Below are positions 10,775-29,410 of a DNA stretch of 42,852 nt, piece after piece. The first letter of the stretch is position 1, and each line of letters opens with the position of its first letter. The translations under genes and the position numbers were made by a program. The notes under the pieces were generated by a model, which was not told the DNA's origin, searched no databases, and was given only the letters and a program-made list of their open reading frames with translations. The stretch is from Candidatus Obscuribacter sp. (lineage in GTDB: Bacteria; Cyanobacteriota; Vampirovibrionia; Obscuribacterales; Obscuribacteraceae): the NCBI GenBank assembly GCA_021772155.1, contig JADYXS010000112.1, forward strand, positions 1 to 42,852, written 5' to 3'.

Positions 10775-11266
10775 TTAGTCTTTCCAATCTCGGACTGTGC
10801 CGAGAATCGATTCTACATAATCACGATCTGAGGCCATCCGTTTTTGCACCGAAATGTGCAATTCATATCGGACGGATTCGAACTCTTCTGCTGTCAGCGT
10901 CATAAGCTGCTTGTCAGCCAGGCGTAGGGCTACGATCAGATCGTTTTCCAATTTTTCCGAGCAGTCCGGTGCATAGGCAAGCGCAATGTATGTGCCGTCG
11001 ACACCGGTCACTAGACCTTCAAGACGCATCCAGTGATCCTGGTCTGTATGGTCGATTCCAATCTGGATGCTACCCCCTACAGCGTACATGTCTAACAGAT
11101 GCAGAGGGCACTCAGGTGGTATCAGAGAAATTCCAATGTACAATTCGTTTGTCAGCTCGAACGGTTCGCGATTGGCGATTGGCCTACCGTGTGGCACTGA
11201 AGATTTATCCAATGGTGTTGCCTCAAGTTGTAAGATGTCCATTCTGTGATCTGGATTCTCGTGCAT
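10775..11266 (-). CDS. 163-aa protein coupled to the giant gene
   Basis: A soluble, acidic 163-aa protein of unknown family, with alternating beta and helical character (LYIGISLIPPECPLHLLDMY, then a C-terminal helix TAEEFESVRYELHISVQKRM). The start ATG overlaps the stop of the 3464-aa gene by one base (TGATG), so translation is probably coupled and the amounts matched. This position, directly after a very large YD-like protein, is where immunity proteins or chaperones of polymorphic toxins are usually found, but no immunity-family motif was recognised. Confidence 0.75.
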   Translation of the reverse strand: MHENPDHRMDILQLEATPLDKSSVPHGRPIANREPFELTNELYIGISLIPPECPLHLLDMYAVGGSIQIGIDHTDQDHWMRLEGLVTGVDGTYIALAYAPDCSEKLENDLIVALRLADKQLMTLTAEEFESVRYELHISVQKRMASDRDYVESILGTVRDWKD

Positions 11267-14200: not shown

Positions 14201-17200
14201 ACCACATCGTCGACTATCGCAGCGCGGAAGCCTTTCGGATCTGCCATCTGCAAAGCGGTTCGATCGAAGGTATTCTTGCGGTGGCGCACTTCGTGGGTGA
14301 CCGTTTTACTGGCCAAAGCCTCCGGATGGAGAGCAGCTACTCCGAGTACGTCCGTGCGCGGACTGTATCCGCCAAAGTTATTGCCACTAGGGTGTTCAAG
14401 CACGAGATTCTTTCGATCAACTAGGGCATCGGCAACATCATCACTTAATCCCATTCTACGCAATTCATTCCGTGCCTGATTAATAAGAGCGTCCTGAATC
14501 TGTTGATCGGTGACTGTCTTATCGCCTTCGAGCCGGCGGAGAATCAGATCGTCGACCGGGCTGGCGGCACCTTCCTTGGTGGCTGCCCCGGTGTGGGCAA
14601 ATCTCTCGACCGCCGGTTCGCCTGATGCAATCTTGCCGGAATTATACACACTGCCTGTAGGAGCGCCGACCGCTGCGTCTAATTTGTTTAAGCGTCTGGC
14701 GAGACTTGCGCCAGCGCCAAATAGTTGAACTCCAGTAACTATAGGCAGAGCAAGGCCAAGGGCCATGAGCACATCCTGCTTGCCGTTTTCGCTGGTGTAG
14801 GGGCGCTCTTCCAGCGCAGCAACAGCCATGCTTGAGCCAACTATACCAATAGCGTTAGTTGCAGTTCCCAGCGCCGTTGCGCTAAGGCGATTTACTGCCA
14901 CTTCCCTGGCGGTCGCCAAAACCTGGGATAGGGTGGATCGGGCGACATCGTCAATAGCCCCCGGACCAGCTTTGATCAATTTCGCCAGCAACTGTGTTTG
15001 TGCTTCAACTGACATTCCGCCCAGCTGATTTCTCTTCGCCAGTTGGGCCACCATCGATTGGAGGGCCTGGTCGGTGACCCCAGCACCGTGCGACATGCCA
15101 TTGCAATACACAGTCATTGTTGCTTCCGTGATCGCTTTGCGTGCTTCGATAGAGAGTCCGGTGAACGTTGCGTCGCTGAGTGCTTTTGTAGCAGCTTTGG
15201 TTGCGGCCATTTCGCCGAGCTGCATTGCAGCTGTTTTGCCGAGCTGCATTGTCGCACCGAAGTGTAATGGATCGGCGAAGTTTACAGCGGTTAGGATTGA
15301 GTATTTGACGAAGTCAGTCAGCAACTGCTGTCTGCCACGGTGCGTGTCGCCCATAAGTCCGTATTTGAGCCCGGCACCAACGACGCCGCCGGTCACTATC
15401 ACTCCGCTTGTGGCAACCAACGCTGCCAGGCTTGTGCCACCGGTAAACGGTGCCGCCACGATTGCACCGGCCATGATCACGCCGTTGATGATAGTTTCGG
15501 ATGTCGACTCCTTGGTCATGTGGAAGGATTTTGTTGCTGTATTGACGGCTGCCCATTGTTGCCGTAACTCTGCCGGCGTAAGGTCGCCGCGATCGAGCGT
15601 AGTTTGAGCCAGGTAGCGCTCTTGCAAAAATCCGCGTAGTGCTTCTTCGTGGCTGATATTGTAGCCCCGAGCTAAAGACGTTACCCAGCCGGTATTGGCA
15701 CGAGAGACAGCATCTGCGGCCTGGACTATTGTCAGGTCTGCCGACCATTCATCGATGCGGGTGAGTCGCACGAATTCGTGCCGGTCCGCTTTGTCCAGTT
15801 TTCCGAGAATATCGCTGCGCAAATTGCCGGTGTCACTTCCCCCGCTTTGGAATTTGCGCTGGTAAGCGTCTGCAAGTTGCGTTCTGGCAGGGACGTCGCC
15901 GCCCATACTGGCAAGAATTTGCCGCGCTTGCTCTTTGGTGACCCCAGCATCGAGAACAAATGCACGCAATTGAGCTTCCGGCGTCACTTTGCCTTCAGCG
16001 AGGATGGAACTGGCGAGCTGCTGCAACTTTGGGTCAGCAATATTGGAGAGAAGAGCATTGCGCTCTGCCGCGTTTCCTTTTAGTCGGGCTAGCGCCTCGG
16101 GGGTAGTATCCAATACTCCATCTTTGAAGTAGCCTTTTACGTCTAAATCTGGGCGAAGACTAGTGCCACCATCTTTTCCACCGGCGACGAAGATGATGTT
16201 CAACTCTTTCAGTGCATCGGGAGAGAGACCGCCCCGGGTACTATCGATCAGTCCTGAGATGAATTTTTCATAGTCCGTCGATTTATCGCGGTCGATGTCC
16301 GTGGCTGAACCCTTGGCGGGAACATAGGTTACTGCCGCAGTAGCTGCTTCGATGAAGCTTTGTTTGAAGGCTTGATCCGATTCCAGGCGCTTACGCAATC
16401 CAGGATCATTGCGCAGCGCATCTTGCACCATGCACACAGAGTCCTTGCGACTGCCAGATTTTAAGCCGGTTTTGATATTCAATTCGTCGACGATCGTTAT
16501 CGCCGGTGACTTTGGCAGATTCTCCTTGTCTGCGGCAATGTCCGCTAGAACGCGATTAATGGCTGTGCGCGCCGGATTTGCCGCGCCGAAAGTTTCGTCG
16601 AGATACTTTGAGACAATCTGCTGATACCCATCAGATTTGCCTCCAATCTTCGCGTTGTGGCGATAGTTTTGCCGGTCTTCGGGACTCATATTCTTAACGG
16701 CGTCCCACATTTTTGAACGGTCTTTACTGAAGGTGCCAGTGTTGTGATTGAGAGTCTCCCACAGTGAGCGACGCACTTCCTGTGAAGCGCCAAACAGATC
16801 TGTGCGATAGGTTTCGTATGCTATAACTCCCTGTTTGCCAAGGTCCCGGATGAATTGCTCACGCATCTCGCGGGTTTTCGATGGACTTTCGGCCTGCATT
16901 TTCTCAAGTTCACGGGCGACTGCTCGACCTTCCATAAATTGACGGAACGTCTCGTTCTTACTGTAAGCTTCGAGTTGCCTCTTCTGGTCCGCGTGCAATC
17001 CATCGGAGGTGTGACCCTTTTCGAGTTTGGCCCGTAAATGAAAACCGGCAACCAGATCGCGGAACTCGCCTTCCGGAATGTTCCGTAGCGCAGGAACCAA
17101 CTCATGCAACTTGGCCGAATCCGTATCTGCAGCCCGAGCAATGTCCAGTGCGCGGCCGATCTTACCGTCGATCATTGCCTTGGCTTTGCCGACATAGTCG

Positions 17201-20200
17201 CCGGAACCGAGGTTCTTGACCATGCCATAGTGTAATTTCGCTTGGAACTCCGAACGGAAATTCTGACCGTCGCGTGTGATATAAGTGTCATGGCGCGCTT
17301 CCTCCATCAATCGATCAAAACTTGCTCGCGACATGTTTTCAATGCCACCAAGATTCTCTTGGTGATCGTTGAACCAGTGGCCACCTATCTCAACTAACTT
17401 TGCTGTGAGGTCGATGCCATCATTGTCCTGGCGTCCTATTTGGGCATCGTAACCAAAAGTCTTGCGCTCGTTTTTGAACCAGTGCAGTCCCTTCAAAGCC
17501 GCTTGCATCTCGTTGTAGAAATCGGTTGCTTCTTGCTGCCCGTCTGTCATTTGCTCCCGTGGCTTACCTTCGCGGGCGAGGGCTTCACCGTCGTGATAGA
17601 GGTTCTGGTCTGCTTTCGACATTTTTTGCAGGGTGTGATTGATCACCTCGTCTTCGTTGCTGAATGTGCCGGTCGCTTTCAGAATTGCTGTTGCCGGCTT
17701 CAGCTTGCCTCGGTCCAGGTAGTCGTTAGCCTGGCGAACAGCGAAATCATCGACTATGTCGTACTTGTCACCAGCAAGATCGGTTCCGGTCTCGGTGAAG
17801 GCAGCGCGAATTCTGGACTTGCCACCGGATCTATTGAATTCGGCGCGATGAGCGTCGGTTGCGATATTTTCGCCGGACGCGATCATGAAATTGTCTAGCG
17901 GATTTTTGGATCGAAGTCCCAGATCCATTATCTGAGACTGCTCTTGAGACGTGCGAATATCGCGCCCCTTTAGCGCGTAGAGTTCCATCGACTTGCGATA
18001 GAATTCATCACCCTGCATGTCGCCATGCGTGTTTTTACCATTGCTTACGTGATCAGCCAAGCTCATCTGGTACATCGCTCGTAACGACGTATCGATACCA
18101 ATTCGATCCTTCTCCGTGGCACTGCCGAGGATTTCGTGATCCTCTCGGCGAATGTCGTCCATACTGCGATCGCGACTCCACCAATACTCTTGTTGCTCCG
18201 ACCGGTTAACCATTAATTGAATCGCACGGTAATCGGTTTCTCTGTCCCGTCGTTTGAACAATCCGTCGACGTGCACTCCACGAAAGAAGTCTGCCCCACC
18301 CACTTCTTCAACCAATTCCCGGCGCAAACGGTCCTGGTCATTGGAGTCGTAGCGGTGGCCCATGACAAAGATTTCTTCGGCAGTCCTGTCTTTCAACTGC
18401 TCAGCAATAACACGCTCTTCAGTACTCTTGTAGGTGTCCCAAGTGCGCTCTTTGGCAATAACATCGATAGGACTTTGTACGTCTCGATGCTCTTTGTGCT
18501 CTTTGCCGTTAAGTCCCCTGTACGATATGTCACCGGTGGTGGTGAAGTCTCGTAAGGCCCCTGTTTCTTGATCGACACTAAAGAATGTGTGGTGCGGAAT
18601 CTTATTGTTGTCAGTCCAGTTAAATCCATTGTCGGTCGTCCAGACTCTAGCTCCTGGTTCGTCACCGAATTGGACTCGTTTTAATCCACCGCCGCGTTGG
18701 AGCACGTCAGAAGGCAGCCCGTATTCATACCGCATGCGAAATCCATTGATATCCAGCGTTTCAACCATGCGACCTTGTTCATCGCGCATCATGAAGGCAC
18801 CGTCGCGCCGCTGCGTCACGGTTGTTCCGTCGTTATTGTGGAAGGTCTGAGAACCATCGCGAGCGATCGCCTGCATTATCCCGCCTTCCCCGACGGACAG
18901 CAATGCGACTATGGGTTTGTTGGGATCGGCAGTGTTGATGTAGACATCTTGTGTACCGTCCTTCAGCTTGTAAGAGCGTCCGTCTTCTTCGAACCCGACA
19001 ACCTGATTCTGGTTGTTGTATTGGAACTTGCGATTGACTTTGTCACCTTCTACTGAGGTGACCTGCCCCTCGAGGTCTTGCTCCACTTTTGTGCCATCTC
19101 TGTACTCAGCGGTGCCCAGCAGCTGCTTGGTCGTTTCATCATAACGGTAGAACAAGGCTCCTCTGCACACTCTCATTTCGCCTTGCTTGCGCCCTTCAAG
19201 GTCAGTCAAGGTACTGCTGCCGTCAGTTCTCTTATGGGAAATTCGTTTGTTGTTCAGGTCGGTTGTGGTGACGGTGCCGTCGTTGGTAACTGCAATTGTG
19301 CGCCGAAGCGACTTCTCGCCGGCGATAGCTTTTCCGTCAGCCGAGTATTTCTGCCAGTCCGTTCCATTGGTGGTGGCAATGTACTCGCCGTTCGAGTTCG
19401 CGTAAGCGACCTTGTTCGGTTTGCCGGTAGCGTCATATCCTAGAATTGCCAAGCCTGAGGGGGTTGGACCGTTGGCGCGAGTGATGTTCACAACCTGTCC
19501 ATTTACCAGTTCGATGGTGGAGGCGTCATTTTTTCTGACAATCTGACGGACCATAGCATTTTCTAGTCGAGATTCGACGACGTGACCCTCGGCGGTCACG
19601 TCGATTTTTCCATCGAACGATTGAGCAGGATTGCTCCCCTCCTTCGTCCAGGTCTTACCATTTGCTCCAATAACCCAGGGCGTTTCCGTGCCATAGCTTA
19701 TGCGGTTTAGCTGGCCGAGATGGTCGTAACTGAAGCTGCGCACAACACCTTTGGAGTCGCGAGCTTCTAGTATTTGGCCTTGCAAGCTCTTTGTCACGCT
19801 GGACTTGTCCGTCAACTCTTTTGTGAGTATCTGACGCCCCTGTGCGTTAGTCCTTCGCTCCCAACCGTCGGCGGTTGTGACTTTCTCCGCTGCTCCGTCT
19901 GGCTTGATGCGCAACGTTCCATCGGCATCGACGGAACGAGATTCTTTGTTAACTGCTATGGTGCCATCTTTGGCCCACCGTTCCGGCTGCGGCTTATCCG
20001 GAGAATCAGGAACTCGCGTGTAAGTTGAGCCGTCTGGCAACTTCATGCCGATTAGTTTGCCATCGGCCGCGCGGAAATAGTCAGTTGCCTGTCCATCCTT
20101 TGTCTCAGTCCGGAGCACTCCACGATGCGCTTCCATACTGCGCAGCACCATCGTGCCATCGGTGCGATTGATGGTCTCTAGCTTATTGTCGGCATTGGCA

Positions 20201-21660
20201 AAGGAAAAGTTTCCGTCGGAATCGATGTCGAACTCGCCACAGACTTCCTTGCCGTCTTTAGATTTCCAGTGGTTGCCTTCCATGCGGTTGAACGTGCGAG
20301 CGCCGATGGTGGCGGACGCTACCTTCGGTGGATTGCCAATGCGCTCGATGGACCGAACCCCGCCTAGAGCATCTTCTGTTGCTTGTACCTTCCCGTCGGC
20401 TCCTATAACTTGCGATGAACCGTCATCTTTGAGGCGCATCGTTTTACCAGTCATCTGCACTAGCGTGGCGTCGGCTATTTGTTCTAGCGATCGTCCTTGC
20501 TTTTCTGTAAAGCCAAAGTCGCCGTTGGGTTTGACGAAGGGCGTTCCGATAGTTCTGAAAGGTGGGTTCGAGCCACGCAGCGCATAGGAACCATCCGTTG
20601 CTCGATCCCAGACGATACCGTTGGAGGTGCCAATCAACATGATGGTGCCGTCCGATACGCGTTCAACGTGCACCTTCTCACCGTTCTGCCGAACAATATC
20701 GGTACTTTGCCTCGGTCCATCCATAGCGTTTGCCTTTGCTACTGGAGTGGCGTCGCTTACCGTGGGTTTTGCACTTTGCGACTCAGCACTGCGGCCTTTG
20801 TTGGTGGTGCGCTCTTGCATCAGGCGTGTGAGCATGTTGCTAAAGGCCTGTGCGGCTTCTTGTGACGGTTTTTCTACGGGCGTCCACTGTTCTTGTTCCA
20901 AGATGGTCCCGGTTTTGGCACTGGTGTCGACCGGGGCGTCGAATGTCTGGGCTAAACCAAGGGAGAATCCATTTTCCTTCGAGATGTTTCGCAGAGTTTC
21001 CTCTCCAGCTCGAATGAATTTTTCCGCTTCTGGCCCTTTAAGATCCTTCCCATCCAGCTTGACGCTTGCAATATGTCCTTGCTTGTCGAACGAAAATTGT
21101 AGTAAACGACCTGCGGCGTTGGCGGTGCTGCCGTTGTAATCAGTCTTGAGTTCGAGGAATGAGGGCATGCCATGCTGAAACTTGGCTACCTGCCGTCCTC
21201 CGAAGGTAGATATGTCTATTATTACCAGGTCCTCTGCGGCCTTGACAGTGGTGCGAACTTCAACATCCGGTGCTGAACTGGTCGACCGAAGCCTTTGTAC
21301 TTCTGTTACTTCCAGGTTTGTTCGTTGATAGATTACGTCGAGCGTTCCTGTCGAGCGGCGATCGCGAGCGTTTTGATCGGAAGTAAATGCCTCCAGATGA
21401 AACCCAGTGGCAGTTGACTTCAAGGCTATCACCGGGCCTTCGCCGCCAATCAGATTGTCTAGCCGGTGCCCATCGATGTCATAGAAAGTCATCTCTCCGG
21501 GAATTCCACCATTCAGTCGAGTCGCGCCTTCGCCAAGACGAGTTCGCACTTCATCCAGAAAATCGCAAAGTTGCCGACTGCTGTGATTGAGTTCTTTCTC
21601 TGGCAACTCTTTGTCAGCGGACTTATCTTCCATTTGCCTTTTCCTGGATATGGGTGTCAT
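11266..21660 (-). CDS. Giant 3464-aa protein: YD-like repeats, helical core, zincin-like motif and C-terminal FHA domain
   Basis: The product has no signal peptide. Residues 1-310 are a mixed N-terminal domain. Residues ~325-1065 are beta-rich with recurring DG turns (RTDGTMVLRS, FSYDHLGQLNRISYG, FQYNNQNQVVGFEEDG), like RHS/YD repeats. Residues ~1066-2050 are helical, with units such as TGTFSNEDEVINHTLQKMSKAD that faintly recall annexin repeats. Residues ~2053-2103 and ~2270-2320 are hydrophobic and glycine-rich, possible membrane-inserting helices. His2456-His2460 form HEVRH, a zinc-metallopeptidase HExxH match. Residues ~3325-3425 are an FHA phosphothreonine-binding domain (LIGRS, SLSRTHLTI, DEGSTYGTYI). 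An alternative ATG at 21633 has AGGA 8 nt upstream and may be the real start. It is co-transcribed with the small gene at 21744-22040. Function unknown; a toxin-like or envelope-linked machine is possible. Confidence 0.85.
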   Translation of the reverse strand: MTPISRKRQMEDKSADKELPEKELNHSSRQLCDFLDEVRTRLGEGATRLNGGIPGEMTFYDIDGHRLDNLIGGEGPVIALKSTATGFHLEAFTSDQNARDRRSTGTLDVIYQRTNLEVTEVQRLRSTSSAPDVEVRTTVKAAEDLVIIDISTFGGRQVAKFQHGMPSFLELKTDYNGSTANAAGRLLQFSFDKQGHIASVKLDGKDLKGPEAEKFIRAGEETLRNISKENGFSLGLAQTFDAPVDTSAKTGTILEQEQWTPVEKPSQEAAQAFSNMLTRLMQERTTNKGRSAESQSAKPTVSDATPVAKANAMDGPRQSTDIVRQNGEKVHVERVSDGTIMLIGTSNGIVWDRATDGSYALRGSNPPFRTIGTPFVKPNGDFGFTEKQGRSLEQIADATLVQMTGKTMRLKDDGSSQVIGADGKVQATEDALGGVRSIERIGNPPKVASATIGARTFNRMEGNHWKSKDGKEVCGEFDIDSDGNFSFANADNKLETINRTDGTMVLRSMEAHRGVLRTETKDGQATDYFRAADGKLIGMKLPDGSTYTRVPDSPDKPQPERWAKDGTIAVNKESRSVDADGTLRIKPDGAAEKVTTADGWERRTNAQGRQILTKELTDKSSVTKSLQGQILEARDSKGVVRSFSYDHLGQLNRISYGTETPWVIGANGKTWTKEGSNPAQSFDGKIDVTAEGHVVESRLENAMVRQIVRKNDASTIELVNGQVVNITRANGPTPSGLAILGYDATGKPNKVAYANSNGEYIATTNGTDWQKYSADGKAIAGEKSLRRTIAVTNDGTVTTTDLNNKRISHKRTDGSSTLTDLEGRKQGEMRVCRGALFYRYDETTKQLLGTAEYRDGTKVEQDLEGQVTSVEGDKVNRKFQYNNQNQVVGFEEDGRSYKLKDGTQDVYINTADPNKPIVALLSVGEGGIMQAIARDGSQTFHNNDGTTVTQRRDGAFMMRDEQGRMVETLDINGFRMRYEYGLPSDVLQRGGGLKRVQFGDEPGARVWTTDNGFNWTDNNKIPHHTFFSVDQETGALRDFTTTGDISYRGLNGKEHKEHRDVQSPIDVIAKERTWDTYKSTEERVIAEQLKDRTAEEIFVMGHRYDSNDQDRLRRELVEEVGGADFFRGVHVDGLFKRRDRETDYRAIQLMVNRSEQQEYWWSRDRSMDDIRREDHEILGSATEKDRIGIDTSLRAMYQMSLADHVSNGKNTHGDMQGDEFYRKSMELYALKGRDIRTSQEQSQIMDLGLRSKNPLDNFMIASGENIATDAHRAEFNRSGGKSRIRAAFTETGTDLAGDKYDIVDDFAVRQANDYLDRGKLKPATAILKATGTFSNEDEVINHTLQKMSKADQNLYHDGEALAREGKPREQMTDGQQEATDFYNEMQAALKGLHWFKNERKTFGYDAQIGRQDNDGIDLTAKLVEIGGHWFNDHQENLGGIENMSRASFDRLMEEARHDTYITRDGQNFRSEFQAKLHYGMVKNLGSGDYVGKAKAMIDGKIGRALDIARAADTDSAKLHELVPALRNIPEGEFRDLVAGFHLRAKLEKGHTSDGLHADQKRQLEAYSKNETFRQFMEGRAVARELEKMQAESPSKTREMREQFIRDLGKQGVIAYETYRTDLFGASQEVRRSLWETLNHNTGTFSKDRSKMWDAVKNMSPEDRQNYRHNAKIGGKSDGYQQIVSKYLDETFGAANPARTAINRVLADIAADKENLPKSPAITIVDELNIKTGLKSGSRKDSVCMVQDALRNDPGLRKRLESDQAFKQSFIEAATAAVTYVPAKGSATDIDRDKSTDYEKFISGLIDSTRGGLSPDALKELNIIFVAGGKDGGTSLRPDLDVKGYFKDGVLDTTPEALARLKGNAAERNALLSNIADPKLQQLASSILAEGKVTPEAQLRAFVLDAGVTKEQARQILASMGGDVPARTQLADAYQRKFQSGGSDTGNLRSDILGKLDKADRHEFVRLTRIDEWSADLTIVQAADAVSRANTGWVTSLARGYNISHEEALRGFLQERYLAQTTLDRGDLTPAELRQQWAAVNTATKSFHMTKESTSETIINGVIMAGAIVAAPFTGGTSLAALVATSGVIVTGGVVGAGLKYGLMGDTHRGRQQLLTDFVKYSILTAVNFADPLHFGATMQLGKTAAMQLGEMAATKAATKALSDATFTGLSIEARKAITEATMTVYCNGMSHGAGVTDQALQSMVAQLAKRNQLGGMSVEAQTQLLAKLIKAGPGAIDDVARSTLSQVLATAREVAVNRLSATALGTATNAIGIVGSSMAVAALEERPYTSENGKQDVLMALGLALPIVTGVQLFGAGASLARRLNKLDAAVGAPTGSVYNSGKIASGEPAVERFAHTGAATKEGAASPVDDLILRRLEGDKTVTDQQIQDALINQARNELRRMGLSDDVADALVDRKNLVLEHPSGNNFGGYSPRTDVLGVAALHPEALASKTVTHEVRHRKNTFDRTALQMADPKGFRAAIVDDVVSNAGRGGKRVVEIPERKFLGVITREREIKLQDRMLAGTSEARFMRDTLRKYLTERPNGELGSPVTDAQMITWMKKNKVEMPKGSSARNQQMLDEMIGEVNHANYVKRTSVIGDAAIKGNPALARALEEQATVLRKMSADGRKTMMQHSMRNRSLDTNALAGDVSRDYYRFSTEEIRARRSELSANLRQVHSDITDLVRGGPRETRDVLKTTASGSESLSIKALQEHMPELRTKDPARAALIESKLREMDGYANQIRFNNSMENLNRNAQDLRAFGDPNTKAQAENRVIRYETRDGKRVPGSEVYDSPAAARTRLNEAISEVMARTPNEHAGTVAYHLYERGLASGDDLMRMSSPRIAGEVANGLILANPQQFTPHKLIALASDAQMHSVASKLLEVQAVTMTDLVDVVRSRNLAAISAAILANSNPPVTLENLAIAMHGKGRLTEFVYYGIDGGAFSRTQVEEAMAKLSGSRHATEIKEILDCRPVGNDPPLRTDWTSNDIDAARAQWMRAPKDQPDAPKRLNPDEFPKRMKPVETGAAKTVEIDGQQYQLYYLKGWYHGKLDGGPEGAVKVHVTTDGRADLGKVQEALLPALKNDPELQSLVIAWKTMDPHAGLGLKSAEQVSGKGQEAKAFTIYTRLPEDAAKVQKILDRLLHEKGLALDRPIATGNVDSIGGASNRVGIVRDYYDVTQIHGMPPAAKLDLILQEHIHARMGLKPGDRLTPEQLRQVETAAGIESRSLEYDAQGNLALLVGGRSNVAHKQGRPQMYLDESRAVKEPGKLTDRHAYYALTSKFLPGGKDPVDLALGAVAHPPEFAPLHIDRAAHITVEGQAGKPGKPIKQVEKLKIAGREIEVQPGGAEQLIGRSHQTIHNSSLSRTHLTIGRTADGQYYIRDEGSTYGTYIKTPNEAQWRQVKGTYHLRGDEKIMMGGYHNAAAADTLLTHGPGARDGVEISLMDTPDNTVPNSTRSQPQRPAER

Positions 21661-21743: not shown

Positions 21744-22040
21744 CTACTGGCAGGCTAATAAATCGCTCAGCGGACCCCATCCTGCTTGTTTCAGGACGGA
21801 ATCACGCATTGCTCTTTGAAGAGTCTGGTCCGGCTGTTCGGCATTTTTGGAGAATACGTTCTTTAAATGATTGGTAAGACCCGTCACATATTGAAGTCCG
21901 CCCCGGCCGGACAGGCGGACTTCAAGTTTTTTCCGCCAATGTGCTGGCGCTTCTGGTGATTTGGGAATCGTTGAAGTTGGGGGTGAGGGGTTGGAGTCGA
22001 CGATTTCGAAAGATGGAAGCATCGTTGTGGAATTGACCAT
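21744..22040 (-). CDS. 98-aa protein heading the giant-protein operon
   Basis: A 98-aa protein of unknown family, first gene after box A. The N-terminal 35 residues are low-complexity and Pro/Ser-rich (SNPSPPTSTIPKSPEAP); the rest is a small helical domain ending AMRDSVLKQAGWGPLSDLL. The ATG at 22040 is chosen because GAGG lies 9 nt upstream; an ATG at 22049 directly abuts that GAGG and could not use it. It is 83 bp from the giant gene with no terminator between, so probably the same transcript. A role as chaperone or adaptor for the giant is conjecture. Confidence 0.65.
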   Translation of the reverse strand: MVNSTTMLPSFEIVDSNPSPPTSTIPKSPEAPAHWRKKLEVRLSGRGGLQYVTGLTNHLKNVFSKNAEQPDQTLQRAMRDSVLKQAGWGPLSDLLACQ

Positions 22041-22076
22041 GTCTGTCATCCTCGGGGGGTCGCATTGCCATAGCGG

Positions 22077-22107
22077 AGTATTTGAGCGTGCGTTACATAA
22101 CTGTTCC
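22077..22107 (-). promoter_or_regulatory. Box A: shared upstream element plus -10-like hexamer
   Basis: On the minus strand GGAACAGTTATGTAACGCAC (22107-22088) is followed after 5 bp by AATACT (22082-22077). It lies 47 bp before the chosen start of the 98-aa gene and is the only copy upstream of the giant operon. It is identical to the other three copies over TTATGTAACGCAC. Confidence 0.8.
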
Positions 22108-22195
22108 AGCGCCTAATGAAATGGGCTGTCGTTGATGGTTGAATTGCTGGTTCGTGACCGCGTATCGGCCAAACAGTCTGGAGGGAAGCCGTGCG

Positions 22196-22477
22196 TTACT
22201 GCGCACCATTTATTTTCATTAGCAGCATTGTGCCGTTAAGGGCATCGACAGCCATTAACATCCACTGCTCTGGTTGGCCTGAGCTTCTTTCGATCCGGTA
22301 CAGATTGCGCAGAGTTGGTGTGGTTCCAGGGTTGTTGCGGAGGAACAGATCCTTCGATACCAGTTTTCTTAGCACTGTCTTCCTAGATCTTTGATCTTCG
22401 CCGAAAGTGTCATGCACATTAAAAGCAAGGAAGTTGCCAGTGTCAGTCAGTTCATAGTTTTGATTAGTAGCCATCAT
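22196..22477 (-). CDS. Small soluble protein behind box B
   Basis: A 93-aa protein (MMATNQNYELTDTGNFLAFNVHD and onward) of unknown family, with a compact alpha/beta look: a helix RSRKTVLRKLVSKDLFLR, then strands LRNLYRIERSS and WMLMAVDALNGTMLLMKI. AGGTG lies 5 nt before the first of two adjacent ATG codons (22477 and 22474). A longer frame from 22531 exists but would start upstream of the transcript predicted from box B, so it is rejected. It forms a single-gene unit. Confidence 0.7.
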   Translation of the reverse strand: MMATNQNYELTDTGNFLAFNVHDTFGEDQRSRKTVLRKLVSKDLFLRNNPGTTPTLRNLYRIERSSGQPEQWMLMAVDALNGTMLLMKINGAQ

Positions 22478-22531
22478 TTCTTCACCTGTTCTGCTTGTCG
22501 CGGCTTCGTTGCCGCGCCTCAGGAGAAACAC

Positions 22532-22562
22532 AATATTCCACGGTGCGTTACATAATTGTTCC
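22532..22562 (-). promoter_or_regulatory. Box B: shared upstream element plus -10-like hexamer
   Basis: GGAACAATTATGTAACGCAC on the minus strand (22562-22543), then 5 bp and AATATT (22537-22532). The gene start at 22477 is 55 bp further. It has the same sequence as box C over the full 20 bp. Confidence 0.8.
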
Positions 22563-22722
22563 GATAGAACGATGGAGAATTTCCAATGTAGAAGGAGGCA
22601 AATTTAGCAGCAGCACTTGATTTCCGGCTGGCAGAAACCGTTAACTTGACCTTAGTAGTGTGCTGCCAAAATCATGTCAAAGTTGAAGTGCCGAGAGCGG
22701 AAGTTTCTATGGGGGTTTTCGC

Positions 22723-23355
22723 GTGATGAGGAAATCAAATCCTGGTTGTCGTTGGTCTAAGGCTTCGTTGCTGATGCGCCCGACTAAGCCGATTACCCTT
22801 ATCCGGACTTTCTCGGTTGCGCTATTTAGTTTCATTATTGGTGGCTTGGTAAACAGTGCCCATTCCGGCCCCTTGTGTTGTCTTAGAACTGGGTCGAGCA
22901 CGGTCAATTCGGCCACGACAAACGCACCCTGGGCTACGGAAAAGCCTTGGTCCGGGCTAAAGGGAATGCGGACTCTGTCGCTAGAAATTAGTGGTGGCGG
23001 TAGTGCCACAGATGAACTCCGGGAAGGAATTGAATCACTATTAGGCAAGCATGGTCTTCAAGTGGTGCCTGCGGAACAGTCTGCGCAACGTGCAGTGGAC
23101 GAACTAAGAGTGAGCCTTAACCGAACTGGTTGCAAAGCCGTCATCGCGAGATCTGACGAATCCCTTCGTTCTGCTCAGCGCTTACCAGTTTGGTTTGCAA
23201 GTCTTTCACTGAATAAGACGGTCACGATGGATGGCGATGAACAACAAATTTGCCAACACGTTCTGACTGAACGAGTAGCGCACCAGTTGCTTGCGGATCT
23301 GTCCCGCGCGAATCGTGATGCCCTGCTCACGCGTCCGGCGGCTCCTGGTAGGTAG
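22723..23355 (+). CDS. Exported or membrane-anchored protein of unknown function
   Basis: A 210-aa protein on the opposite strand to its neighbours. It starts with GTG at 22723 (or ATG at 22726), with GGGGG 7-10 nt upstream. Residues ~28-47 (IRTFSVALFSFIIGGLVNSAHS) form a signal peptide or anchor. The outer part has MRTLSLEISGGGSATDELREGIESLLGKHGLQVVP, whose beta-alpha-beta pattern resembles small periplasmic domains. Unlike the flanking genes it lacks the shared box. No family recognised. Confidence 0.65.
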   Translation: MMRKSNPGCRWSKASLLMRPTKPITLIRTFSVALFSFIIGGLVNSAHSGPLCCLRTGSSTVNSATTNAPWATEKPWSGLKGMRTLSLEISGGGSATDELREGIESLLGKHGLQVVPAEQSAQRAVDELRVSLNRTGCKAVIARSDESLRSAQRLPVWFASLSLNKTVTMDGDEQQICQHVLTERVAHQLLADLSRANRDALLTRPAAPGR

Positions 23356-23383
23356 AATTTCTGGACAGGCTTGCAGCGTGAGA

Positions 23384-23406
23384 GAGCCGATCCATCGGAT
23401 CGGCTC
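23384..23406. terminator. Hairpin between convergent genes
   Basis: GAGCCGATCC and GGATCGGCTC form a perfect 10-bp stem with an ATC loop. It sits 28 bp after the plus-strand gene stop and 32 bp before the minus-strand gene stop. No T tract follows on either strand, so this is probably a bidirectional end or RNA-stabilising hairpin. Confidence 0.5.
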
Positions 23407-23438
23407 CCTACGTTGGCTCAACGGTTTGATGGATCGGG

Positions 23439-24452
23439 TTACTTCTCCGCTGCGTCTTTTATCTTTCCAAGCAACCCAATTACGGGATTGGCCTTTTTGA
23501 ATAACTGCCAACCAGTTTCAATGAGTGGTTTTGCTTGTTGCGCAGTGTTTTTTGCGACCCTTTCAACGTCACCCGCCATGGCTGTGGAATGGTGACCGGC
23601 TGTCTCTTTGGCAGATTTGGCAGTTTCAACGGCCAGATCCACGGTCCTGCGATCGGCATCCTGTTTTAGTTTAAATACGTCAACAACCAGATCAACTGTC
23701 TTGCGATCGACATCTTGTTTCAGCTTCACAGCGTCAACGGCCAAATCAACTGTCTTGCGATCGACATCTTGTTTCATCTTCACAGCGTCAACAACCAGGT
23801 CTACTGTCTTGCCATCGACATTCTGTTTTAGCTTCATGGCGTCAGCAGCCAGGTCAACCTTTTTGCGATCGACAGTCTGTTGAAGCCTTACAGCGTCCAA
23901 AATGGTTTCTTTCCCGCTGTCCCAGACTCGTTTATCTGCTTTCATGCCTCCTTCAAGGAGTTTCCTTTCTGCCGTAAGCTCACCATTGCGTAGTTTCAGT
24001 GCGGCCGCAAGTATTGGGTCTAGTTTTGCCGGTCCAAGTGGTTTTCCGTCATCGAGCTTTCTCAGTTCGCTCATCGCGCCGTCTACCGCATTACCTCGCT
24101 GTTTATGCGCATCGCCGATTCCTTCGAGGATGTCCATTCCAGCTTTGATACCAGTTTCGTTGCCACGTGATTGCATTTTCAATAAATCATTGAAACCTGC
24201 TCGAACGGCCGGGTCTTTGGCAATGTTTTTGGATATATCCATTCCGATAAGTGCCGGAAACAATAGATGCGTCGGTGAGATGGCGCGGTCGCTCTTGTTT
24301 TCTAGGCAGACTCCGCCTGCTACGACCGCCGATGCTGAAATTCCGGGTGCGACAATTGCAAGAAGGTTCCAGTTATCGTTTGTGGATTGCTTTGCACCTT
24401 GATTGTGATCACCTTCGTGAGGCTTCACTATGTCCTGCGTATCTTTGGGCAT
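23439..24452 (-). CDS. Repeat protein with five 18-residue amphipathic helical units
   Basis: A 337-aa protein of unknown family. Residues ~1-180 are a helical head with one mildly hydrophobic stretch (LLAIVAPGISASAVVAGGV). Residues ~186-275 consist of five tandem units close to VDRKTVDLAVDAVKLKQD. Eighteen residues make five helical turns, so each unit puts Val/Leu/Ala on one face and Lys/Asp on the other; such repeats often bind lipid or form long coiled coils. The C-terminal ~50 residues (LIETGWQLFKKANPVIGLLGKI) are weakly amphipathic. GGAG lies 6 nt before the ATG. Box C is about 110 bp upstream. Confidence 0.75.
   Translation of the reverse strand: MPKDTQDIVKPHEGDHNQGAKQSTNDNWNLLAIVAPGISASAVVAGGVCLENKSDRAISPTHLLFPALIGMDISKNIAKDPAVRAGFNDLLKMQSRGNETGIKAGMDILEGIGDAHKQRGNAVDGAMSELRKLDDGKPLGPAKLDPILAAALKLRNGELTAERKLLEGGMKADKRVWDSGKETILDAVRLQQTVDRKKVDLAADAMKLKQNVDGKTVDLVVDAVKMKQDVDRKTVDLAVDAVKLKQDVDRKTVDLVVDVFKLKQDADRRTVDLAVETAKSAKETAGHHSTAMAGDVERVAKNTAQQAKPLIETGWQLFKKANPVIGLLGKIKDAAEK
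23626..23895 (-). repeat. Five tandem 54-bp coding repeats
   Basis: Units start at 23626, 23680, 23734, 23788 and 23842 and each encodes 18 residues. Units 2 and 3 are nearly identical at the DNA level (both contain TCAACTGTCTTGCGATCGAC on the plus strand), while units 1 and 5 have diverged most. The gradient suggests recent duplication in the middle and possible length variation between strains. Confidence 0.85.
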
Positions 24453-24552
24453 AATCTCTCCTATAGAAACTCCTCGAGCTTGTGCCTATTGGTGCACTGG
24501 CAAGGTACTTGCGAGCTGGAGAATTTCGAATTTGTGTGGTCTACGAAAGAAC

Positions 24553-24583
24553 AATATTCGAGCGTGCGTTACATAATTGTTCC
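24553..24583 (-). promoter_or_regulatory. Box C: shared upstream element plus -10-like hexamer
   Basis: GGAACAATTATGTAACGCAC on the minus strand (24583-24564), 5 bp, then AATATT (24558-24553). The repeat-protein start at 24452 is 100 bp downstream. The flanking GCGCTGG before the box is also shared with box A. Confidence 0.8.
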
Positions 24584-24697
24584 AGCGCCGAAAGTGCAGT
24601 TTGAATTTCAAGGAGGAGTGGTGGTCAGGTGCGGTAAAAGAGAACGTCCATACTGAGCGCTCTCCTTTCCCCTTTGATTGAACTTCGTGAAGTTGTT

Positions 24698-26065
24698 CTA
24701 TCTCTTGCGTTTGCGCTCATTGAATACAGCTTGTTGAAGCTCGCACATCGCTGCGAAATCGGAGTACTTAACCCTGGATTGTGACATGAGTGGTGTCCTG
24801 GAATCAGCAACGTTATGCTGTGCGAAATACATGTCATCCACCAGAATCCGGTCCTGATAGATCGTGATATCGCGCATAATCCGACGCGGAAAGCTGGCAT
24901 CGAGAGGCTGTAAGCCCGGAATCGGGAGGTCATTAGGAGCAGGTCTGGACACTTGCCTCCCGAGGTTGAATTGCAGTCCTTCACCGGGCACGGCCCTCAC
25001 GGGCATGGCGAATGCTTCGCTCAGATAGTCGGCGATGACCTCAAGCTGCTTCTGGTCTGTAACGCCATGGAGAGATCGCTGCAACCACACTGAGTCGCCG
25101 GTGATGAGTGCCTTTCCCATATCCTTTATCAGCATCATACTCGAGGGCGGCGGAGATGATTTCAGGCGATCTTGAAAGCGTTCGACCCTTTCGTTTACCG
25201 ACTGCCTGGTGATTGGAACGTCTTCCGCTGCGTCTTTCAAATAGGCTTCTCCCAAACGCCGAGCAGCCTCCTGTGATGCCTGATTCCTGTTACTTGAATG
25301 TTTTTCGAATTCAGTATCGATGATTGTGGGTGTATTGCGGAATAACCCTGGATAGAGCACGGCTTGCTGAAGTTCGGACATCGTGGCGGAATTGGCTTGT
25401 TTTACCTGATGGTACCCAGTCCACATTGTCCCTCCAATCATTTTCTCGGAGCGAATTTCATTACCGGCTTCCAGATGCACCCGATCGGAGTAGACGTTGA
25501 TTCGATGGTGGCTCGTTGGTGCCTCCGTAGCTTTACCGAATCTCGGTGGCCGACGCTCTACCAGGAGGAATTGGAGTCCTTGACCCGATACGGGCTGTAT
25601 TGGCAAACTGAATGCTTTGCTTAAATAGGCAGCGGAGTCCTCTAGCTGCTTAGTGTCAGTGGTCTTCGCCAGGTCTCGCTGCAGTAACGTCAAGTCGCCA
25701 GTTATCAGCGCCTTGCCGATATCGTTGATTAGCGCTTTATCTGATTTCGGTGGTGTTGCCTCTAGGTACTTTTCAAAGCGGGTGATCTCATTCTTGATCC
25801 TCTCTTCCATGGCCGCCGCGATGAGCGCTGCTGCTTCTGCTCTGTCGATACCCAAGTAATCTTTTGAAGAGTTGCCAAACTCATTTTTGTTCCCCTGCTT
25901 GCTGTCTTTCTTGTCCGCGCTCTGTCCACTTTCTTCACGATCTGGAACCGCTTTAAGAAGGCGCGCTGCTACCGATTCGGAAATACTCAAAAGGTTCAGC
26001 CCGGCACACTGGTCAACTGGTTCACCGCGTTCGGCACCATAATTCATTTCAATTCTTTCATTCAT
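24698..26065 (-). CDS. 455-aa protein with an internally duplicated domain
   Basis: No known family. Two copies of a domain of about 170 residues are visible. Copy 1 (roughly residues 75-240) has DIGKALITGDLTLLQRDLAKTTD and ATMSELQQAV. Copy 2 (roughly 275-450) has DMGKALITGDSVWLQRSLHGVTD and AAMCELQQAV. Each copy runs helix pair, PVSGQGLQF/AVPGEGLQF strand, then a YSDRVHLEAG/YQDRILVDD strand pair. No signal peptide or membrane helix. GGAG lies 11 nt before the ATG, a slightly long spacing. Box D is about 100 bp upstream, making this the fourth box-controlled unit. Confidence 0.75.
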   Translation of the reverse strand: MNERIEMNYGAERGEPVDQCAGLNLLSISESVAARLLKAVPDREESGQSADKKDSKQGNKNEFGNSSKDYLGIDRAEAAALIAAAMEERIKNEITRFEKYLEATPPKSDKALINDIGKALITGDLTLLQRDLAKTTDTKQLEDSAAYLSKAFSLPIQPVSGQGLQFLLVERRPPRFGKATEAPTSHHRINVYSDRVHLEAGNEIRSEKMIGGTMWTGYHQVKQANSATMSELQQAVLYPGLFRNTPTIIDTEFEKHSSNRNQASQEAARRLGEAYLKDAAEDVPITRQSVNERVERFQDRLKSSPPPSSMMLIKDMGKALITGDSVWLQRSLHGVTDQKQLEVIADYLSEAFAMPVRAVPGEGLQFNLGRQVSRPAPNDLPIPGLQPLDASFPRRIMRDITIYQDRILVDDMYFAQHNVADSRTPLMSQSRVKYSDFAAMCELQQAVFNERKRKR

Positions 26066-26153
26066 GACTGCATTTACTCCAGAAACTGCTTTGAATTTCG
26101 CATGGGATGAAAACCCTTGGCAAAGCTGATTGACGACTCGGTCACATCAGCAA

Positions 26154-26184
26154 AGTAACCCGGGGTGCGTTACATAATCGTTGC
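26154..26184 (-). promoter_or_regulatory. Box D: shared upstream element, most diverged copy
   Basis: GCAACGATTATGTAACGCAC on the minus strand (26184-26165), 5 bp, then GTTACT (26159-26154). The core ATTATGTAACGCAC is unchanged while the GGAAC part has one substitution. It lies in the divergent 254-bp gap with the response-regulator gene (start 26320), of which the rest shows no other clear motif. Confidence 0.75.
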
Positions 26185-26319: not shown

Positions 26320-27006
26320 ATGGCCAAGATTTTGGTTGCCGATGACGACAGGAATATAGCCGAAGAGCTGCAAGATTGGCTGGAGAGCCAAAACTTCGTA
26401 GTGGAGGTCTGCTTTGATGGGACTGACGCCCTGGCTCGTTTGCAGGACTTTGGCTACGATCTAGCCATACTTGACTGGCAGATGCCCGGAGTCAGCGGCG
26501 TTGATGTTTGCAGCAGGTATCGTGCTCACGGGGGACGTGCGCCGATTCTTCTTCTAACAGGCAAGAAGGAAACTGCTGATAAAGAATGCGGTCTTGATTC
26601 CGGCGCTGATGATTACATAACCAAGCCGTTTGAAATGCGTGAATTCGGGGCCCGGGTTCGTGCCCTACTTCGTCGGTCGGCGCCCTACTTCGCTGACAAA
26701 GACTCTCAGGGGACACTTACTCTTGATAGAGCGTCTATGAGCCTGACATTGGAAGGTAAAACGATGCGACTATTGCCGAAGGAATACAGTCTTTTGGAAT
26801 TCCTGATGCGCCACGCCAACACGTTTGTACCTTCCGAGAAAATTCTGGACCATGTATGGGATTGTGATTCCGATGCATCTAATCAGGCCCTTCGAACATG
26901 CGTCAACAGATTGCGAAAAAGAATCGATAAAGATGGTAGTCCCAGCTTAATTGAATCAGCCAAGGGCTACGGCTATAGGCTCAGCGTTCCTGAAAAATTA
27001 CAATGA
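26320..27006 (+). CDS. OmpR/PhoB-family response regulator
   Basis: A 228-aa two-domain DNA-binding regulator. The receiver (1-120) has the acidic pocket Asp8-Asp10, phospho-acceptor Asp52 (LAILDWQMPG), Thr in LLLTGK and Lys in TKPF. The winged helix (about 130-225) has LLPKEYSLLEFLM and the recognition-helix region RTCVNRLRKRID, ending GYGYRLSV. It has a strong AAGAGGAG site. It is the first gene of a three-gene operon with a helical-repeat protein and a sensor kinase, and it overlaps the next gene by 4 nt (ATGA). Because box D lies in its upstream gap, it is a candidate to bind the four boxes, but this is an inference from position. Confidence 0.95.
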   Translation: MAKILVADDDRNIAEELQDWLESQNFVVEVCFDGTDALARLQDFGYDLAILDWQMPGVSGVDVCSRYRAHGGRAPILLLTGKKETADKECGLDSGADDYITKPFEMREFGARVRALLRRSAPYFADKDSQGTLTLDRASMSLTLEGKTMRLLPKEYSLLEFLMRHANTFVPSEKILDHVWDCDSDASNQALRTCVNRLRKRIDKDGSPSLIESAKGYGYRLSVPEKLQ

Positions 27007-27908
27007 TATCGGACATAGGCGAATGCGGCACAATCAAAAGTGGACGTCCAGTCTCATGGTTGCTTGGCCTTCTTGTTTGCCTGTTAGCGCAATTTTTCAC
27101 GCCAAGCGAATGTTTTGCATTCCCAGTGGATAGGGAATGGGAGAAACTATCTCGGGATGCCAGCCGAGCTGAGTTTAAAGGTGATACCAGTAAAGCAATG
27201 CTGCTCATTGATCAGAGTATTTCGGCAACCAAAATAACTGCACCGGCCTCCGATCAAGCTCGTATAAGCCTAAAGAAATGTCGGATGCTTGTGGCACAGG
27301 GATATCTTCCGGAGGCTATCGCACAAGCCAATGGTGCCGCCAAGATCCTTTCGCCTAACATCTGGCAAGATAAAATTGTCTCCTATCAAATCAATCGCGC
27401 CGTTGCTGAATGGTGCCTAAGAACTAATGATGCGGCCGGTGCTGTACGGTCGGCGAAGATCGCAGTAGCGTTGAACCAAGAGCTGGATTCTGAGATGTCT
27501 TTAGAGCACAACAGGGCCGCGATGCAACTTGTGGAAGCTCTTGTTCGCGCCAAGATGTTCAAAGAAGTGCTCGATGCAGTGAAGGCTAACGATGAGGCAT
27601 TTGAGCTTGAGTTAAAGAGAGCCGAGGTTACCATAGAACAGGTCGAACTGCTCTGCGGTCTCGGCATCTCAAAGGTGGCGCTTGGCCAAAAGGAGGCCGG
27701 ATATGCACTCCTAAATCGCTCGATGGATTTGTCCAGGCGTTTGAATGTAAAATGGACTCGTCACCACGTGGCGCAGCAAATCCTTGAATCTGGTATCAGT
27801 CTCGATGATAAGCCATTCTTTGCCAAACTCTCTTCGCATATTCATTCTCTTGAGCCCGCAAACAGAGATTCCCTAGAACCATTCATCCGCCGTCATGGCA
27901 GTCAATAG
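27003..27908 (+). CDS. Exported helical-repeat (TPR-like) protein within a two-component operon
   Basis: A 301-aa protein with a signal peptide (WLLGLLVCLLAQFFTPSECFA, cleavage near residue 39), so most of it lies outside the cytoplasm. The rest is helical with TPR-like units (residues ~45-250, for example GYLPEAIAQANGAAKIL, GLGISKVALGQKEAGYALLNRSMDL). Its ATG overlaps the response-regulator stop, and the kinase gene begins 12 nt after its own stop. An extracytoplasmic protein coded between regulator and kinase may act as accessory sensor for the kinase; that role is inferred. Confidence 0.8.
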   Translation: MISDIGECGTIKSGRPVSWLLGLLVCLLAQFFTPSECFAFPVDREWEKLSRDASRAEFKGDTSKAMLLIDQSISATKITAPASDQARISLKKCRMLVAQGYLPEAIAQANGAAKILSPNIWQDKIVSYQINRAVAEWCLRTNDAAGAVRSAKIAVALNQELDSEMSLEHNRAAMQLVEALVRAKMFKEVLDAVKANDEAFELELKRAEVTIEQVELLCGLGISKVALGQKEAGYALLNRSMDLSRRLNVKWTRHHVAQQILESGISLDDKPFFAKLSSHIHSLEPANRDSLEPFIRRHGSQ

Positions 27909-27919
27909 GTGTCTGTCTC

Positions 27920-29410
27920 ATGAAACTAAAATTTCAGGGATACGCGCTTATCGCTGTTCCACTTGCAGTCCAGATATGCCTCACATACAGTTTGCTAAGC
28001 ACTGTTACTGATCTCGATCGCACCATTAGCCGCGAGAACAAAGCCAAGCAAATTCTTGCAAGGTCTGACAGCCTTAAGAACGCGGTGGCGGAAACGGTGA
28101 TGATATTTGGGATTCTCCGCGTTAGCATTCGAGAGCCTGCCTTGAAGGCATACGAAAAAGTCTATGCTGCTAGCAGTCAACAAATAGATGAGCTGTTGCA
28201 GTTATCTGCTGAAGACCCGAAAGGATCAGAGGCAGTTACTCAGTACGTTGATTCCATACGCCACTATTTTGATTTGATGACAGATTCTATGAAGGCATAC
28301 TCGTCCGGGGGTGGTCGCCCAACGTTTGCCAATGTCGTGAAGGAAGAGGAGTTGTTAGTTGAGCTGACAATAACTGAACATCAGGTGTCAAAAGCGTCTC
28401 GGCGGATTCAAGCGATTTATGGGCCGGAGGTGAGCGACGCGCAACCAGAGGCTGCAAAAAAACGGCAGGACCTGCGCTTTTTAATATCATTCGGTATTTT
28501 CGCCGACGTGATATTGTCGCTGGTCCTCGGCACCATATTTGGTGCCTTGACGCTTCGGCGATTATCCACGCTGATGAAAAACATCGACTGCTTCTTCGAA
28601 GGGCGAAAGGATCTGGCTGCGATTGGTGGTAGCGATGAGATTGCCGAGATTGATAGCAAGTTTCGGAGTCTGGCCGAGCTGCGATGGCAAGCAGAGCAAG
28701 AAAAGGCCGCCGTGCTGCAGACTGTTGCCCATGATTTGCGCGGACCACTAACCTCAATAAATCTTATGGTATCAAACCTTCTTGAACTTCACAGCTCGGG
28801 TTTGCAGCCGAAAGTAGAGCGTTCTGTAAAGCGCATTCAGTCTGAAACCAGCAGGCTAAAGCTTCTCTGTGATGATTTTCTTGAAATTGAAAGAATGGAA
28901 TCCGGCAATATCAAGCTCGAAATGGTTCGACAATCTGTGGAGCCACTGCTTATGCGGTCTTTAGACTCGCTTGGCGGTTTGGCTGAGGAAAAGCACATAA
29001 CGCTGACAGCTTCAGGTGGGGAGACGCTGGAGGTTTTCTGCGACGGTGAGCGAATCATCCAGGTCCTGGTTAACTTGGTATCGAACGCGATAAAGTTTTC
29101 ACCTTCCGAATCGACCGTGGAAGTATCGGCGCACGCAAACGACGAGCATGTCACGTTCTCTGTACGCGACCATGGTCCAGGAATTAGTGAGGCAGCGCGA
29201 GCAAAACTGTTTCAGAGATTCAGCACGGGCACCAGCGCAGGTGGTGTCGGCTTGGGTTTGTGGATCTGCAGCCGAATCGTGGCGCTACATAATGGGCGGA
29301 TAGGGGTTGAGTCATCAGAAGGACAGGGTAGCCGCTTCTGGCTTGAAATTCCCAATACGCAGCGCAGGCACGGGTTGCCAGATGAAAAAACGAGAGCGCA
29401 GCTGAAATAG
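27920..29410 (+). CDS. Membrane sensor histidine kinase
   Basis: A 496-aa kinase. Transmembrane helix 1 lies at about residues 8-28 and helix 2 at about 190-212, enclosing a ~160-residue extracytoplasmic helical sensor domain. A HAMP-like linker follows, then the H-box VAHDLRGPLTS with phospho-acceptor His271, N-box LVNLVSNAIKFS, G1 DHGPGI and G2 GVGLGLW. It ends GSRFWLEIP plus a short charged tail. It is the third gene of the operon and the probable partner of the response regulator at 26320-27006. The signal sensed is unknown. Confidence 0.95.
   Translation: MKLKFQGYALIAVPLAVQICLTYSLLSTVTDLDRTISRENKAKQILARSDSLKNAVAETVMIFGILRVSIREPALKAYEKVYAASSQQIDELLQLSAEDPKGSEAVTQYVDSIRHYFDLMTDSMKAYSSGGGRPTFANVVKEEELLVELTITEHQVSKASRRIQAIYGPEVSDAQPEAAKKRQDLRFLISFGIFADVILSLVLGTIFGALTLRRLSTLMKNIDCFFEGRKDLAAIGGSDEIAEIDSKFRSLAELRWQAEQEKAAVLQTVAHDLRGPLTSINLMVSNLLELHSSGLQPKVERSVKRIQSETSRLKLLCDDFLEIERMESGNIKLEMVRQSVEPLLMRSLDSLGGLAEEKHITLTASGGETLEVFCDGERIIQVLVNLVSNAIKFSPSESTVEVSAHANDEHVTFSVRDHGPGISEAARAKLFQRFSTGTSAGGVGLGLWICSRIVALHNGRIGVESSEGQGSRFWLEIPNTQRRHGLPDEKTRAQLK

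What the first reader, a model, noticed from the sequence alone, without database searches (positions are those of the whole stretch)
22077..26184. Four-copy 20-bp box with fixed -10 spacing: an undescribed regulon
Four minus-strand copies share TTATGTAACGCAC exactly and most of GGAAC upstream; each is followed after 5 bp by AATATT, AATACT or GTTACT. Each copy starts a separate minus-strand unit. Fixed spacing to a -10-like hexamer indicates a promoter element: an alternative sigma -35 or an activator site in place of a -35. No such motif was seen elsewhere in the window.
Basis: partly seen in the sequence, partly recalled or inferred. Interest (0 to 1): 0.85.

Follow-up and report, generated by a model that had tools for sequence, protein, structure and literature searches.

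The report
Four shared promoter boxes, one locus
Four neighbouring genes or operons in an uncultured Obscuribacterales-like bacterium share a 20-base switch in front of each start, probably the docking site of the two-component regulator next door; it is real, but confined to this one place and built like known regulator-controlled promoters.

Summary
G(G/C)AAC(A/G)(A/G)TTATGTAACGCAC occurs four times on the minus strand (26184-26165, 24583-24564, 22562-22543, 22107-22088), each upstream of a well-placed start codon and each with a -10-like T-A-Y-T at constant distance. This is far beyond chance. It is not a genome-wide regulon: a profile scan of the 7.0 Mb assembly scores the four sites 41.6-46.6 bits and the next best 12.4; nothing convincing turns up in 49 family genomes; the outside near-matches I inspected are coding sequence or a palindrome. 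There is no sigma-70 -35 hexamer. The conserved bases outside the 13-mer (G.AAC) repeat its GTAAC at an 11-bp period, 11 nt before TAYT: the layout of OmpR/PhoB-type activator boxes that replace a -35. The only DNA-binding regulator recognised in the window is an OmpR-family response regulator, divergent from the first box, with its kinase. Best reading: a locus-restricted two-component regulon of a giant RHS/FHA operon plus three units of unrecognised proteins (three proteins tested had no clear homologue in 49 family genomes). Binding by that regulator is inferred. An ECF-sigma promoter fits worse. Ordinary mechanism, unknown cargo.

The parts
26165..26184 (-). box copy 1 GCAACGATTATGTAACGCAC, between the 455-aa gene and the divergent response-regulator gene
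26152..26157 (-). -10-like TACTTT, 7 nt after box 1
24698..26065 (-). unit 1: 455-aa protein with two repeats of one domain; no Pfam/NCBIfam match, no homologue in 59 relatives, plasmids or phages
24564..24583 (-). box copy 2 GGAACAATTATGTAACGCAC
24551..24556 (-). -10-like TATTGT, 7 nt after box 2
23439..24452 (-). unit 2: 337-aa protein with 18-residue (54-nt) repeats; no family match, no homologue in 49 family genomes
22543..22562 (-). box copy 3 GGAACAATTATGTAACGCAC
22530..22535 (-). -10-like TATTGT, 7 nt after box 3
22196..22477 (-). unit 3: about 93-aa protein (start ATG 22477), no family match
22088..22107 (-). box copy 4 GGAACAGTTATGTAACGCAC
22075..22080 (-). -10-like TACTCC, 7 nt after box 4
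21744..22049 (-). unit 4, first gene: 101-aa protein, no family match
11266..21660 (-). unit 4, second gene: 3464-aa giant with RHS/YD repeats, HEVRH motif and C-terminal FHA domain
10775..11266 (-). unit 4, third gene (overlaps the giant's stop): 163-aa protein, only a weak match elsewhere in the same genome
26320..27006 (+). OmpR/PhoB-family response regulator (Response_reg + Trans_reg_C), candidate binder of the boxes
27003..27908 (+). 301-aa protein, no Pfam match, between regulator and kinase
27920..29410 (+). histidine kinase (HisKA + HATPase_c), presumed partner of the regulator

Best explanation
The four boxes are operators of one DNA-binding activator, placed where the -35 hexamer would be, so that the housekeeping RNA polymerase starts the four minus-strand units only when the activator is bound. 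The activator is most likely the OmpR/PhoB-type response regulator at 26320-27006, switched by the kinase at 27920-29410. As a tandem dimer it would bind the direct repeat GNAAC-N6-GTAAC (11-bp period) 11 nt upstream of a TAYT -10. It would co-express a giant RHS/FHA protein operon and three units of unrecognised proteins. Shown: four near-identical boxes, constant spacing to TAYT, no -35, one box per unit, locus restriction. Inferred: promoter activity, activation rather than repression, identity of the regulator, common function of the genes.
For: Four sites score 41.6-46.6 bits, next best in the assembly 12.4. Constant N7 to TAYT; hexamers 16-18 nt upstream of it match TTGACA in at most 2 of 6 positions; no sigma-70 promoter was called at the boxes. 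Each box lies in the leader of a minus-strand gene with an SD-like sequence. The bases conserved outside the 13-mer, G.AAC, repeat GTAAC at 11 bp (column-shuffle P 0.008 for a period of exactly 11, 0.02 for 10-12, 0.08 for any period 6-14). OmpR/PhoB-family sites are direct repeats, typically 7-bp motifs with a 4-bp spacer (PMC4832192); Salmonella PhoP boxes lie 12 nt (11 in yrbL) upstream of the -10 in architecture I promoters (PMC3335776). The only DNA-binding regulator recognised in the window is the divergent OmpR-family protein, with receiver and winged-helix domains and an adjacent kinase gene.
Against: No binding or transcript data. The 11-bp repeat is short (4 shared conserved bases), and its significance is moderate once other periods are allowed. 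The genome holds at least 33 OmpR-family regulators at E<=1e-50, any of which could be the binder. Promoters of the regulator's homologues in relatives do not carry the box, so there is no comparative support for the pairing. Copies 2 and 4 share 35 of 38 bases and may stem from one duplication, so there are fewer than four independent sites.
Confidence: 0.5

Rival explanations
1. Operator of a different regulator (encoded elsewhere, or the local one acting as repressor). The boxes are co-regulatory sites, but not activator sites of the neighbouring response regulator.
For: At least 33 OmpR-family regulators in the genome. The core contains a short dyad TTA-TG-TAA, though a dyad that short is expected by chance (shuffle P 0.92). 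Divergent position of copy 1 would also suit autorepression.
Against: A repressor would not explain the missing -35. No other regulator was recognised in the window, and a factor with only one target locus is usually encoded beside it (inference).
Confidence: 0.25
2. Promoters of an alternative (ECF) sigma factor, GGAAC being the -35 and TC(A/G)AA the -10, 17 bp apart.
For: Copies 2 and 4 read GGAAC-N17-TCGAA and GGAAC-N17-TCAAA (sequence), close to ECF-type consensus as I recall it.
Against: Copy 3 has TGGAA and copy 1 has GCAAC...CGGGT. The invariant 13-mer lies in what would be the spacer, which sigma factors do not read. No sigma factor gene was recognised among the window proteins scanned. 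No genome-wide family of sites.
Confidence: 0.12
3. Residue of recent short duplications or a small mobile element, with no regulatory role.
For: Copies 2 and 4 are 92% alike over 38 nt.
Against: No other copies in the assembly or in viral contigs. Similarity of copies 1 and 3 to the rest ends sharply at the 20-bp box plus TAYT. All four sit in the same strand, orientation and position before a gene. The downstream proteins are not paralogous to each other.
Confidence: 0.08
4. A site acting on RNA or in recombination (leader element, integron-like attC).
For: Repeated sequence before unrelated genes.
Against: Distance from box to start codon varies widely (40-111 nt), no Rfam family at gathering score, no inverted arms typical of attC, and GTT at the core is present only in copy 4.
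Confidence: 0.05

Closest known systems
Salmonella/E. coli PhoP box, architecture I promoters (OmpR/PhoB family)
   Same: Short direct repeat of 11-bp period in place of a -35, 11-12 nt upstream of the -10 hexamer (PMC3335776).
   Different: Half-site GNAAC/GTAAC rather than (T/G)GTTTA; the 3' flank GCAC is also fully conserved here; all sites lie in one locus rather than across the genome.
E. coli PhoB pho box, Streptomyces PhoP box (GTTCACC-N4-GTTCACC)
   Same: Tandem direct repeats of OmpR/PhoB-type regulators with 11-bp period (PMC4832192).
   Different: Sequence of the half-site; no phosphate genes near; the local regulator is well below the NCBIfam PhoB cut-off (173 versus 296 bits).
Cyanobacterial HLR1 element bound by RpaB
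   Same: Read on the + strand the second half-site is GTTACATA, an exact match to the HLR1 half (G/T)TTACA(T/A)(T/A) (PMC9241938); cyanobacteria are related to this lineage.
   Different: HLR1 repeats have a 10-bp period (2-nt gap); here the other half is GTTCC/GTTGC at 11 bp; the local regulator is far below the RpaB cut-off (133 versus 330 bits).

Membership tests
OmpR/PhoB-family response-regulator activated promoter | Direct repeat of half-sites with about 11-bp period | tested here: inconclusive
   GNAAC-N6-GTAAC in all four; shuffle P 0.008 for period 11, 0.08 for any period.
OmpR/PhoB-family response-regulator activated promoter | Box replaces or overlaps the -35, with fixed spacing to a -10 | tested here: met
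   TAYT at 7 nt from the box in all four, no -35.
OmpR/PhoB-family response-regulator activated promoter | Binding by an OmpR/PhoB-family regulator | not testable with these tools
   Candidate at 26320-27006 has Response_reg and Trans_reg_C domains; binding needs an experiment.
RpaB/HLR1 regulon | Two (G/T)TTACA(T/A)(T/A) repeats separated by 2 nt | tested here: not met
   One exact half; the other half is absent at the HLR1 spacing (sequence; definition).
RpaB/HLR1 regulon | Regulator is RpaB | tested here: not met
   132.7 bits against a cut-off of 330.
ECF sigma promoter | GGAAC-type -35 conserved in all sites | tested here: not met
   Copy 1 has GCAAC.
ECF sigma promoter | Common -10 motif at about 16-17 bp, unconserved spacer | tested here: not met
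   TCGAA, TCAAA, TGGAA, CGGGT; 13 invariant bases lie in the spacer.
Genome-wide regulon | Further sites upstream of other genes | tested here: not met
   Next best site 12.4 bits; degenerate pattern 22 hits versus 22 in the reversed control; assembly 88% complete.

The most novel reading that the evidence does not exclude
A dedicated two-component system with its own private operator sequence controls one cluster in which a giant RHS/FHA protein is co-expressed with several lineage-specific unrecognised proteins: a self-contained, regulated contact or secretion module not described in this lineage, whose parts are tied together only by the shared box.
Probability: 0.3. Interest if true: 0.5.

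Novelty: new member of a known kind. Interest (0 to 1): 0.33.

Why it matters
If the boxes are one regulator's operators, they link four units of otherwise unrecognised proteins to a giant RHS-type protein and to a testable regulator in a lineage for which I found no such regulation study in the papers searched. They would also give one of the few predicted operator sequences for Obscuribacterales. The mechanism itself is ordinary.

Tried and rejected
Genome-wide regulon: rejected for this assembly. Conservation in relatives: exact 13-mers in G011 and G019 lie inside coding frames (a multicopper-oxidase-like and an ABC-transporter-like ORF), and the one-mismatch hit in C367 lies in a dnaA-like frame. 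A three-mismatch hit in C344 is part of a long palindrome. Box upstream of the regulator's homologues in relatives: absent. Locus-specific repeated boxes near regulator homologues or near related giant genes: none convincing; one 11-mer family in L132 had no shared flanks, and most giants in relatives run off their contigs. One pattern search used a spacing one base too short (N10 instead of N11) and so missed the boxes; it was repeated with the right spacing. AlphaFold of the 455-aa protein from a single sequence gave mean pLDDT 44.6, so no fold search was run.

Full report
Setting. The window is contig C516 of a 7.0 Mb, 730-contig assembly (88% complete). The best named match of its response regulator is a Candidatus Obscuribacterales genome (50% identity), so the organism is probably of that group.

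Observation. The 13-mer TTATGTAACGCAC occurs exactly four times, all on the minus strand between 22088 and 26177. With its upstream part the box is G(G/C)AAC(A/G)(A/G)TTATGTAACGCAC. Four exact copies of any 13-mer in such a window are expected about 4e-6 times, and leave-one-out matrix scores separate the four sites from everything else in the window by at least 20 bits. The start codons follow 87, 99, 53 and 26 nt after these hexamers, with SD-like sequences.

Extent. In the own assembly the four sites score 41.6-46.6 bits and the next best 12.4. In 49 other genomes of the family the best is 17.7 bits, about what that many genomes give by chance. Pattern searches agree. The outside near-matches I inspected lie inside coding frames or a palindrome. 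A degenerate pattern of the proposed architecture finds 22 sites against 22 for its reversed control, and only the four boxes match without mismatch. The box is therefore private to this locus, as far as an 88% complete assembly shows.

Genes. Unit 1 encodes a 455-aa protein with two copies of one domain; unit 2 a 337-aa protein with 18-residue repeats; unit 3 about 93 aa; unit 4 a 101-aa protein, a 3464-aa giant with RHS repeats and a C-terminal FHA domain, and a 163-aa protein overlapping its end. The small proteins match no Pfam or NCBIfam family. The three of them that were searched (455, 337 and 163 aa) have no homologue in the relatives apart from one weak own-genome match of the 163-aa protein. 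Parts of the giant are widespread in the family (33 of 50 genomes) and a related giant lies on contig C37 of the same genome without any box. The unit proteins are not paralogues of one another, so the boxes are not just copied along with duplicated genes, although copies 2 and 4 share 35 of 38 bases.

Mechanism. Hexamers 16-18 nt upstream of TAYT match TTGACA in two positions at most, so these would be weak promoters needing help. The conserved bases outside the 13-mer, G.AAC, repeat its GTAAC at a distance of 11 bp (shuffle P 0.008 for a period of 11, 0.08 over all periods 6-14). Direct repeats of about this period are the rule for OmpR/PhoB-family regulators (PMC4832192), and Salmonella PhoP boxes of the simplest class lie 12, once 11, nt upstream of the -10 (PMC3335776). 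The only DNA-binding regulator recognised in the window is of that family, divergent from box 1, and followed by a histidine kinase. This makes the neighbouring two-component system the best candidate. It remains an inference: the genome has at least 33 such regulators, and promoters of the regulator's homologues in relatives lack the box.

Against an alternative sigma factor. GGAAC resembles an ECF -35, and copies 2 and 4 have TC(A/G)AA 17 bp on. Copy 3 lacks that -10 and copy 1 lacks both elements. The invariant 13-mer would be spacer.

Comparison. The element works like a PhoP/PhoB-type box. It is not an HLR1/RpaB site: one half-site (GTTACATA on the + strand) matches the HLR1 half exactly, but the spacing differs and the regulator is far below the RpaB cut-off.

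Verdict.

Noticed in passing
window 11266-21660 (-): 3464-aa giant: RHS/YD repeats in the N-terminal third, a hydrophobic stretch, an HEVRH (HExxH-type) motif and a C-terminal FHA domain; a 650-aa part is 62% identical to part of a 6824-aa open frame on contig C37 of the same genome.
   Followed up: partly
window 29593-32685 (+): 1030-aa ORF with a weak RHS-repeat match directly downstream of the histidine kinase; it may belong to the same module.
   Followed up: no
window 22199-22191 (-): A bare GTAACGCAC just after the stop of the 93-aa ORF, without first half-site or -10; probably chance.
   Followed up: partly
window 22774-23355 (+): About 193-aa protein with an N-terminal hydrophobic segment, encoded on the opposite strand between boxes 2 and 3; no Pfam match.
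   Followed up: no
window 23621-23890 (-): 54-nt tandem repeats (18 residues per unit) inside the 337-aa gene.
   Followed up: no
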